From contig JAPPII010000076.1 of NCBI GenBank assembly GCA_028820845.1, positions 1 to 64,000 of the forward strand: DNA of 64,000 nucleotides, read 5' to 3'. Position 1 is the first letter of the stretch. Every line of letters begins with the position of its first letter. The notes under the pieces were generated by a model. The model had not been told where the DNA came from. It did no database searches and was given only the letters and a program-made list of their open reading frames with translations. The stretch comes from Candidatus Poribacteria bacterium. GTDB lineage: Bacteria; Poribacteria; WGA-4E; WGA-3G. Both the position numbers and the translations under genes were made by a program. Below are positions 13,620 through 43,970 of this stretch, piece after piece.

Positions 13620-14189
13620 CTATTCGGACAGCAGTTGCAGAACAAGATAGCAGTTAGGTGTCTTCTTCTCAGCCCCTAATTCACTGCTAAGCCTCTTACA
13701 TTCATTCCAATAACGCGTATAATTGAGGGGTCGGTATCGGCGGCGTTGTGTAATAAAGGTTTTATGACAACACGCTAATTCATTGCCGTTATGAATCGGA
13801 TATCCCCAGACCCGACAGATGACTGGACGGTGCTCGTAGACAGCACACACTCCGCCTATTAGCATCGGACACTGACCTTCAGGCGTGCCTTTTATCACCC
13901 CGATTGCTTTCATGCCTGCATCGGGTATGATGTTTTCAACATTGTAGCCGTGCGTCTCCAATTTTTTGATAGTCCGCTCGGCTTTCCGGCGGACATGCGT
14001 GCGAAGCTGGGGAGAAAGCATCCGCAACCCGATCTTCAAGTCCTGAGCTTCGACCTCACTAATCGCCATTGTTGCTGTATTCTGGCAGCAGGAGAAGCAG
14101 TCAGTTGGACACGGTGTGCCCCCCGACGCTTCACGCAAACGTTCAACATCGCGCTGAATCTCGCTAACAAGTTCACGATAGGCTTCCAT
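13620..14189 (-). CDS. YkgJ-type cysteine-cluster protein
   Basis: 189 residues. The YkgJ family cysteine pattern is present: CPTDCFSCCQN (about 27-37), CPMLIGGVCAVYEHRPVICRVWGYP (about 108-132) and CCHKTF (about 141). The family is thought to bind zinc or an iron-sulfur cluster through these cysteines, and its function is not settled. The start lies eight bases after the stop of the cold-shock/Sm-like gene on the same strand, so the two should form one operon. It may therefore act in the same RNA-related process, which is inference only. Confidence 0.85.
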   Translation of the reverse strand: MEAYRELVSEIQRDVERLREASGGTPCPTDCFSCCQNTATMAISEVEAQDLKIGLRMLSPQLRTHVRRKAERTIKKLETHGYNVENIIPDAGMKAIGVIKGTPEGQCPMLIGGVCAVYEHRPVICRVWGYPIHNGNELACCHKTFITQRRRYRPLNYTRYWNECKRLSSELGAEKKTPNCYLVLQLLSE

Positions 14190-14197
14190 AGCAACAC

Positions 14198-15151
14198 CTA
14201 ATCCAAGGAAAGCGCGTAAACAGCATGGCGGAAGATAACGACTTTTGCCCCATTCGCTAAAATCAGCTTAATCTCATAAGGACTCACCCAGTCTATCGTC
14301 CCATGAAAAATCTCTCCCTCTCGGAGTGTGATCTCAATCATAGATTTACTTCTTCGGGCACTCTGCACTGCCTCGGTATCCAGTTCACAGGTGTCGGCAT
14401 CAGAAGTTAATTGCGTTAACTGCTGTGCCTTGACATCTTCATCAATATCAATAGCTGCCTGAACCCGTTCCGCGTCAACATCCTTATAGCAGTATTTAAC
14501 ATCCGTTTTAGCGACGTGCCGCTCCGTTCCATTGCTATTGAGGGTCAAACGTGAGAGCGTCATTTCAAGGACCGTTGCGGGAAGTTGAACATCGTCGGGC
14601 AATGCGAAAAACATCGGGGTTTCAAAGTTAATCTGTTTGAGGATGTAAAGGTCTCCGAAGCTGAGCTGTTTTGAAGTTTGTTCTTTCGGATCCTGGGTCG
14701 AAGTTTCAGCAGTGTCGAAATCTCTGGGGGAGATTGGCTGGCTCCTCGGTTTCGCAGTCGGTTTTGAAGTCGCTATAGAGACACTGCGGTCGCGGCGGCT
14801 CCGAATCGGCTTTGACCGGGGGGTTTCTTCCCTAAAGGTAGTACGTTCATTACTGAGGAATTGGTCTTGATGTTGCCCTGGGAAACCTGAGTAGCCACGC
14901 GGAATGATCGCTTTTCCTTGTCTCAGCCATCGGCGTTCTGTGGGAGTGAGCAACACTTCAACATTCTGGGCGACGAGTCCCTTCTCACCTTCAACAATGT
15001 TGTATTTGACCCGTTGACCGACCCGGAGTTCCTCGTATTCGGGTTGCTTAATGGCGGAACTGTGTAAGAAGACATCAGCATCACTGCTATCTTGGGCGAT
15101 AAATCCGAAACCTTTATCGAAATTGTAGTACTTAATCCGTCCTGTAGGCAT
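14198..15151 (-). CDS. Cold-shock domain protein fused to two Hfq/Sm-like domains
   Basis: 317 residues. Residues 1-66 are a cold-shock domain with RNP1 (KGFGFIA, 13-19) and RNP2 (DVFLH, 26-30). Residues 70-160 are a basic Arg/Ser/Pro-rich linker. Residues 165-225 read like one Sm domain (GDLYILKQINFETPMFFAL, then DVQLPATVLEMTLSRLTL), and residues 270-317 like a second with a better Hfq match: IEITLREGEIFHGTIDWVS for Sm1 and VIFRHAVYAL for Sm2, where Hfq has YKHAIS. It would bind single-stranded RNA at three sites. The Sm assignments are from pattern alone. CCAGGAG precedes the ATG, and ykgJ follows in an operon. Confidence 0.7.
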   Translation of the reverse strand: MPTGRIKYYNFDKGFGFIAQDSSDADVFLHSSAIKQPEYEELRVGQRVKYNIVEGEKGLVAQNVEVLLTPTERRWLRQGKAIIPRGYSGFPGQHQDQFLSNERTTFREETPRSKPIRSRRDRSVSIATSKPTAKPRSQPISPRDFDTAETSTQDPKEQTSKQLSFGDLYILKQINFETPMFFALPDDVQLPATVLEMTLSRLTLNSNGTERHVAKTDVKYCYKDVDAERVQAAIDIDEDVKAQQLTQLTSDADTCELDTEAVQSARRSKSMIEITLREGEIFHGTIDWVSPYEIKLILANGAKVVIFRHAVYALSLD

Positions 15152-15326
15152 TATATGCTCCTGGCGTCTTGTCCATTTTCAGGAAGCTGACGCTAAACAT
15201 TCACCATTTGCGTTCCTATGTGAGCATTTCTCTTTCATCAAGAAGCTGGCACGTCAGCCTCTCTGAATTTATTGTTTTTATTCACACAATAAACCTGCTG
15301 TATTATCAAATTCTTCAGCGTCAAAA

Positions 15327-43656: not shown

Positions 43657-43970
43657 TTAAAAAAGCCCTCTCGTTCCAACTTTGGAGACGAGAAGGACAC
43701 TTACACTGACCTTACCGTGGTACCACTCCAATTCCCTTTCTCATTTTTATTGACGATATTAGGACTTACAAAGTCCATCTGTCACGAGAAAGAGCACTCT
43801 TTGGGACGCAATAACGGGCATCATACCGGCGAACCCTACTTATTGTTCAGATTCGCAGCTCCAGGGCGACCTTCAGTCGTGGGAACTTGAGGAGACCTTT
43901 CAGCCCGTGAGTCTCCCTCTCTTGCAAGCCTTGACGACTTACTCCTCCCCTTCAACGCTTTTTGGGTAAT
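43657..43970 (-). promoter_or_regulatory. T-box leader of the ilvBNC operon
   Basis: On the minus strand: a stem I start GGAGGAGTAAGTCG (about 43945), AGAGAGGGAG and GGGCTGAAAGG internal motifs, then CTGGAGCTGCGAATCTGAA (43864-43846) and the canonical 3' side AAGTAGG...CGCCGG. The specifier is probably ATC (Ile, 43852-43850), although CTG (Leu) one base further is possible. The T-box sequence GGAGTGGTACCACGG (about 43729-43715) follows, and then a terminator stem (about 43698-43665) before a T-run. Uncharged tRNA should stabilise the antiterminator and allow transcription of ilvB. Confidence 0.9.
43665..43698 (-). terminator. Regulated terminator of the T-box
   Basis: On the minus strand, GTCCTTCTCGTCTCC-AAAGTT-GGAACGAGAGGGC is followed by TTTTTTAATTT. 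It overlaps the antiterminator half that pairs with the T-box sequence, as in classical T-box riboswitches. Confidence 0.8.

What the first reader, a model, noticed from the sequence alone, without database searches (positions are those of the whole stretch)
14198..15151. Cold-shock domain fused to two Hfq/Sm-like domains
Seen: an N-terminal cold-shock domain with RNP1/RNP2, an Arg/Ser/Pro linker, then two segments matching Sm patterns, the last ending VIFRHAVYAL where Hfq has YKHAIS. Known: CSD and Hfq are separate RNA chaperones in most bacteria. Inference: one chain could combine the two and, with two Sm folds, might form trimeric-like rings. No separate hfq was seen in this window. The next gene in the operon is a YkgJ-type protein.
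Basis: partly seen in the sequence, partly recalled or inferred. Interest (0 to 1): 0.78.

Follow-up and report, generated by a model that had tools for sequence, protein, structure and literature searches.

The report
Cold-shock protein fused to twin Hfq
In one family of sponge-associated Poribacteria a single gene joins a cold-shock domain to two Hfq-type ring domains and seems to be the cell's only general copy of either of these two classic RNA-chaperone domains, which most bacteria encode as separate genes.

Summary
Window 14198-15151 (-) encodes a 317-aa protein: cold-shock domain (residues 3-65), conserved post-CSD helix, disordered R/S/P-rich linker (about 79-160), then two Sm/Hfq folds (165-223 and 259-316). 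AlphaFold gives helix plus five strands in both at pLDDT around 90 or higher; the first, folded alone, matches only Hfq among the 50 listed PDB chains; the second is an Hfq by sequence profile. Both match single-domain Hfq relatives of Acidobacteria. Full-length orthologues occur in 56 of 59 genomes of this family of Poribacteria and in related families, under strong purifying selection, followed by a YkgJ-type gene in 42 of 46 loci. The genome has no detectable stand-alone hfq or csp; in four single-contig genomes of the genus this gene holds the only CSD and the only tandem Hfq found. The other Hfq copy in this genome is also a tandem, inside a GmrSD restriction protein that ends in a CSD. 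Ring pockets look asymmetric: domain 2 keeps Y/R/H at E. coli positions 42/56/57, domain 1 keeps only the lysine. The trimer-of-tandems ring and the RNA-chaperone function are inferred, not shown. New variant of a known kind.

The parts
14198..15151 (-). CSD-Hfq-Hfq fusion gene, 317 aa
   Evidence: ORF and translation; orthologues full length in 56/59 genomes of the family; dN/dS 0.11-0.15 over the whole gene
14954..15145 (-). Cold-shock domain, residues 3-66 (RNP1 KGFGFI, RNP2 VFLH)
   Evidence: Pfam PF00313 E 1.1e-19; top solved matches CspA/CspB; dN/dS near 0
14672..14917 (-). Disordered Arg/Ser/Pro-rich linker, residues about 79-160
   Evidence: pLDDT below 50 for most of it; dN/dS about 0.3
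14483..14659 (-). First Sm/Hfq fold (Sm1), residues 165-223: alpha helix 165-175 plus five strands
   Evidence: AF2 (pLDDT 93.7 alone); Foldseek lists only Hfq; profile match to acidobacterial Hfq 2.9e-14
14204..14377 (-). Second Sm/Hfq fold (Sm2), residues 259-316, motif VIFRHAVYAL
   Evidence: Hfq_1 E 1.3e-5; profile vs solved Hfq 4e-7; AF2
13620..14189 (-). Downstream YkgJ-type CxxCxxCC gene, likely same operon (8-nt gap)
   Evidence: PF03692 E 9.3e-6; directly downstream in 42 of 46 loci
15204..15229 (-). Conserved 5' leader block AAATGCTCNCNNAGNAACGNNAATGG, 53-78 nt before the start codon
   Evidence: Conserved at nearly fixed distance in most genus-level upstreams; unique in the genome

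Best explanation
It is a chromosomal, conserved RNA-binding protein that carries a cold-shock domain and a duplicated Hfq on one chain and probably serves as the organism's general single-stranded-RNA chaperone. Shown: the domain make-up, both Hfq folds, conservation, and no other general csp or hfq gene detected in the assembly. Inferred: three chains close into a six-Sm ring with alternating Sm1 and Sm2. The Sm2 units (Y292, R308, H309 = E. coli F42, K56, H57; basic rim R266, R267, K269) would form the working U-rich-RNA pockets and rim. Sm1 (only K215 of the pocket kept) would be a mostly structural unit. Three cold-shock domains on flexible arms would melt or capture nearby single-stranded RNA. 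The distal, A-rich-RNA face of E. coli Hfq (Y25, K31, Q33) is not conserved, so target choice should differ from E. coli Hfq.
For: CSD; AF2 of the whole protein and of Sm1 alone; Foldseek; Sm2 profile vs Hfq; bridge to acidobacterial single Hfq; residue mapping on E. coli Hfq; only two Hfq and two CSD copies in the genome, the second of each in one GmrSD fusion; one CSD and one tandem Hfq in each of four single-contig genomes of the genus, G080, G082, G083, G084; purifying selection and synteny; other CSD plus Hfq joinings elsewhere (CSD-single Hfq in L161; GmrSD-HfqHfq-CSD; S1-S1-HfqHfq-CSD).
Against: No RNA binding, ring or expression data. Sm1 has lost most pocket residues in this genus and has no direct sequence match to Hfq families. 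The whole window protein scores 25.7 bits on Hfq_1, just under the cut-off of 27. The relative placement of the two Sm folds in the model was not examined (coordinates and PAE not available). Genome completeness is about 95%, so a missed csp or hfq cannot be fully excluded in this one assembly.
Confidence: 0.68

Rival explanations
1. The twin Hfq part is only an oligomerisation scaffold (a ring that multiplies CSDs); RNA contact is by the CSD and linker, and there is no Hfq-like sRNA or mRNA annealing.
For: Sm1 lost its pocket and neither Sm keeps the distal-face residues; the CSD is the most strongly conserved part (dN/dS near 0).
Against: Sm2 keeps H57, an aromatic at 42, R/K at 56 and the basic rim in nearly all relatives. 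The tandem Hfq also occurs without any CSD, as proteins with basic tails, so it must have a use of its own.
Confidence: 0.2
2. It is a nucleic-acid sensor of a defence system: tandem Hfq and CSD recur on GmrSD, TmtA/sacsin-like and UvrD-GrpE proteins, so the stand-alone protein could be a regulator or antagonist of those.
For: Fusions to defence-type proteins.
Against: The gene is in a conserved housekeeping neighbourhood (ferredoxin, DUF971, amidohydrolase, mtnA, YkgJ), present in nearly all genomes of the family, whereas the defence fusions are sporadic. In the tree the defence fusions sit in a separate clade, apart from the CSD-Hfq-Hfq proteins.
Confidence: 0.1
3. The two Sm folds pair within one chain or assemble into rings of another size (for example four or six chains), not a trimer of tandems.
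For: Linker of about 35 residues with its own helices between the folds; nothing measured fixes the stoichiometry.
Against: Hfq rings from solved structures are hexamers (established knowledge), and two Hfq folds per chain fit three chains.
Confidence: 0.25

Closest known systems
Hfq (PF17209 / TIGR02383) and Hfq-related PF21979
   Same: Alpha helix plus five-strand Sm fold twice; Sm2 keeps the Hfq helix, the basic rim, G29, G34, aromatic 42 and the (F/Y)(R/K)H motif
   Different: Two Hfq folds on one chain joined by a 35-residue helical linker, CSD in front; distal-face residues lost; Sm1 pocket degenerate
Acidobacterial single-domain Hfq relatives (L150-L160)
   Same: Carry both the Sm1 hallmark (KQMQxKTPMVF ... 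NIKYMYK) and the Sm2 hallmark (GVIEWYDK); profile matches 2.9e-14 and 2.8e-11
   Different: One Sm fold, about 100-160 aa, no CSD
PRK14091 / NF010691 'RNA chaperone Hfq' (176-position model whose two halves each match an Hfq)
   Same: Appears to be a tandem Hfq, so two Hfq folds on one chain is not unheard of
   Different: No Poribacterial protein comes near its cut-off (scores of about 14-15 bits against 270); no CSD
Cold-shock proteins CspA/CspB (PF00313)
   Same: Complete CSD with RNP1 and RNP2
   Different: Normally stand-alone, about 70 aa; here fused and apparently the only general copy
NF047624 LIC_13076 family (model named after a Leptospira locus, as I read the name)
   Same: Weak collinear match over linker plus Sm2 in 8 of 37 relatives, best 5.9e-6
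   Different: Not examined further; far below its cut-off of 110

Membership tests
Hfq | Sm fold with N-terminal helix and five strands | tested here: met
   Both domains by AF2; Sm1 alone matches Hfq in 50 of 50 listed rows
Hfq | Sequence closer to Hfq than to other Sm/LSm | tested here: met
   Sm2 profile: listed solved hits are Hfq or Hfq-like; Pfam Hfq in 33 of 37 members versus LSM in 1; Sm1 only via acidobacterial Hfq
Hfq | Score above curated cut-off for this protein | tested here: inconclusive
   25.7 of 27 bits (whole protein), 27.3 of 27 (tandem part alone) on Hfq_1; some relatives exceed the PF17209 cut-off
Hfq | Proximal pocket F42 / K56 / H57 | tested here: inconclusive
   Sm2: Y292, R308, H309 (kept). 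Sm1: S200, K215, T216 (only the lysine kept)
Hfq | Distal A-rich RNA face Y25, K31, Q33 (as in E. coli; not universal among Hfq) | tested here: not met
   T275, I281, H283 in Sm2; A183, Q189, P191 in Sm1
Hfq | Hexameric ring, RNA chaperone activity | not testable with these tools
   Needs protein
Cold-shock protein | CSD with RNP1 and RNP2 | tested here: met
   PF00313 E 1.1e-19; motif in sequence
Cold-shock protein | Stand-alone small protein | tested here: not met
   317 aa with two Hfq folds
PRK14091 tandem Hfq | Score above 270 bits | tested here: not met
   The Poribacterial proteins tested score about 14-15 bits or are not listed

The most novel reading that the evidence does not exclude
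One family of Poribacteria has merged its whole general CSD and Hfq repertoire into one gene whose product forms an asymmetric three-chain, six-Sm ring with three mobile cold-shock arms; in the same phylum this duplicated-Hfq module became a portable RNA-binding domain that was attached repeatedly to antiphage effectors.
Probability: 0.4. Interest if true: 0.8.

Novelty: new variant of a known kind. Interest (0 to 1): 0.64.

Why it matters
CSD proteins and Hfq are the two textbook bacterial RNA chaperones and are normally separate genes. A natural fusion that appears to be the only general copy of both would show that they can be physically coupled. It gives a natural test of how an Hfq ring with two kinds of subunit works, since each chain offers two different sites that can be mutated independently. 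The phylum-wide tandem Hfq, also found on restriction and other defence-type proteins, points to RNA-binding modules on antiphage effectors that defence-family models do not include. Ten full-text searches of the open library found no description of a CSD-Hfq fusion or of tandem Hfq; subscription papers were not searched.

Tried and rejected
Direct profile comparison of Sm1 with Sm2 is weak (probability 18%), and Sm1 has no convincing hit to solved structures by sequence; both gaps were closed by the acidobacterial bridge and by structure. A plasmid search and a viral-contig scan found no relative, so there is no sign that it is plasmid- or phage-borne. The genome-contig scan used a single conserved motif and so under-samples other phyla. 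The hairpin idea for the leader block was tested and not supported by covariation. Ten paper searches gave nothing on this architecture. Failed calls through wrong coordinates: 23, 71, 90.

Full report
What is there. The ORF at 14198-15151 (-) encodes 317 aa with a conserved Shine-Dalgarno sequence. Pfam finds a cold-shock domain at residues 3-65 (E 1.1e-19) and, near the C-terminus, Hfq_1 (PF21979, E 1.3e-5) and Hfq (E 0.015). The close relatives found in genome contigs belong to Candidatus Poribacteria, which fixes the phylum of the window.

Two Hfq folds. From 41 homologues AlphaFold2 gives two copies of the Hfq pattern, alpha helix plus five strands: 165-175 with strands to 223, and 259-267 with strands to 316, mostly at pLDDT 90 or more. 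The segment between CSD and Sm1 (about 79-160) is disordered. Sm1 was the doubtful one: it has no convincing sequence hit and only a weak match to Sm2. Folded alone it reaches pLDDT 93.7, and all 50 listed Foldseek matches in the PDB are Hfq (rmsd mostly 0.7-1.1 A, TM about 0.8). Sm2 as a profile hits Caulobacter, archaeal, Bacillus and Staphylococcus Hfq from 4e-7, including the Hfq N-terminal helix. Acidobacteria carry a single-Sm protein (Hfq_1 and Hfq matches) that resembles both halves: against Sm1 2.9e-14, against Sm2 2.8e-11. The simplest reading (inference) is duplication of such an Hfq, with each copy keeping part of the ancestral features.

Residues. Mapped on E. coli Hfq, Sm2 keeps the basic rim (R266, R267, K269), G29 and G34, an aromatic at 42 (Y292), R at 56 (R308) and H57 (H309); it lacks the distal-face Y25, K31 and Q33. 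Sm1 keeps K56 (K215) only; the aromatic at 42 is present in most deeper relatives (Y in 21 of 31 rows) but is S200 here. A ring of three chains would thus alternate functional-looking and degenerate pockets (inference).

Distribution. Full-length CSD-Hfq-Hfq occurs in 56 of the 59 genomes of the window's family and, at lower identity, in 12 of 14 further genomes of the order; most class-level relatives are tandem Hfq without the CSD and with a basic or low-complexity tail. A tandem-Hfq profile finds matches in 80 of 85 genomes and in all 56 of good quality. The listed Pfam Hfq hits that were inspected in the family are also tandems; exceptions lie outside it: a CSD-single-Hfq protein in G005 (L161) and a 93-aa single Hfq in G002 (L162). 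A maximum-likelihood tree puts one class-level CSD-headed protein (L061) outside the main CSD clade, so the N-terminal CSD was gained or lost more than once.

Only copy. In the window's genome the Hfq, Hfq_1 and tandem searches find this gene and one other, and the CSD search finds the same two places. Weak extra matches (E 0.008 and above) were not followed. The other gene (G000:C74, L034:4221-6875) is an 884-aa GmrSD_N restriction protein ending in tandem Hfq and a CSD. In the single-contig genomes G080, G082, G083 and G084 there is exactly one CSD and one tandem Hfq, both in this gene. Families f2, f3 and f4 of the same order mostly have ordinary 67-109 aa Csp frames as well, so loss of the stand-alone Csp seems specific to this family (inference from absence).

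Selection and context. dN/dS against three relatives is 0 to 0.01 for the CSD, 0.09-0.15 for the tandem Hfq and about 0.3 for the linker. The YkgJ-type gene follows in 42 of 46 loci, usually within 11-51 nt; ferredoxin, DUF971, amidohydrolase and mtnA are also often conserved neighbours. The YkgJ partner has no assigned function here. A 26-nt leader block (15204-15229) is conserved at nearly fixed distance in most genus-level upstreams and is unique in the genome; a hairpin is not supported by covariation. It may be an autoregulatory site, untested.

The module elsewhere in the phylum. Tandem Hfq sits at the C-terminus of, or inside, GmrSD proteins, some followed by a CSD, sacsin/TmtA-like proteins (L208, L209), UvrD-GIY-YIG-GrpE proteins (L220, L221, L210), and an S1-S1-HfqHfq-CSD protein (L222). 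PADLOC models match the non-Hfq parts as HEC-06 / type IV restriction, TmtA and GajB-like helicase. This suggests that the module is a portable RNA-binding unit (inference).

Mechanism. Best supported: a general RNA chaperone in which a ring of Hfq folds holds RNA and flexible cold-shock arms bind single-stranded stretches. Shown: domains, folds, conservation, copy number. Inferred: stoichiometry, RNA binding, chaperone activity. Verdict: a real and unusual architecture, new variant of a known kind; tandem Hfq itself has a likely precedent in the NCBIfam model PRK14091.

Noticed in passing
L034:4221-6875 (-), own genome G000:C74: GmrSD_N restriction protein with C-terminal tandem Hfq and CSD; next to a second GmrSD_N gene and a ThsB-type TIR gene, i.e. 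a defence island.
   Followed up: partly
L208:536-4258, L209:580-4203: Sacsin/TmtA-like proteins of about 1200 aa ending in tandem Hfq.
   Followed up: partly
L210, L220, L221: UvrD helicase with inserted GIY-YIG, then GrpE domain, then tandem Hfq (L210 and L221 with S1 repeats after it).
   Followed up: partly
L222:302-1342: S1-S1-tandem Hfq-CSD protein of 347 aa: three kinds of RNA-binding domain on one chain.
   Followed up: partly
L161:1119-1700 (-): CSD fused to a single Hfq (194 aa) in a class-level relative: a simpler form of the fusion.
   Followed up: partly
window 15204-15229 (-): Highly conserved 26-nt leader block upstream of the fusion gene, unique in the genome; hairpin not supported.
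   Followed up: partly
window 43681-43964 (-): T-box leader (RF00230, E 1.8e-23).
   Followed up: no
L169, L168, L172: Other CSD fusions in Poribacteria: one frame reads like a type III CRISPR protein behind a CSD (L169), two read like GIY-YIG-type proteins ending in a CSD; domain calls by eye only.
   Followed up: no
L150-L160: Acidobacteria carry a diverged single-Sm Hfq with a basic N-terminal tail (RKLIRPS...), near the Hfq cut-offs.
   Followed up: partly
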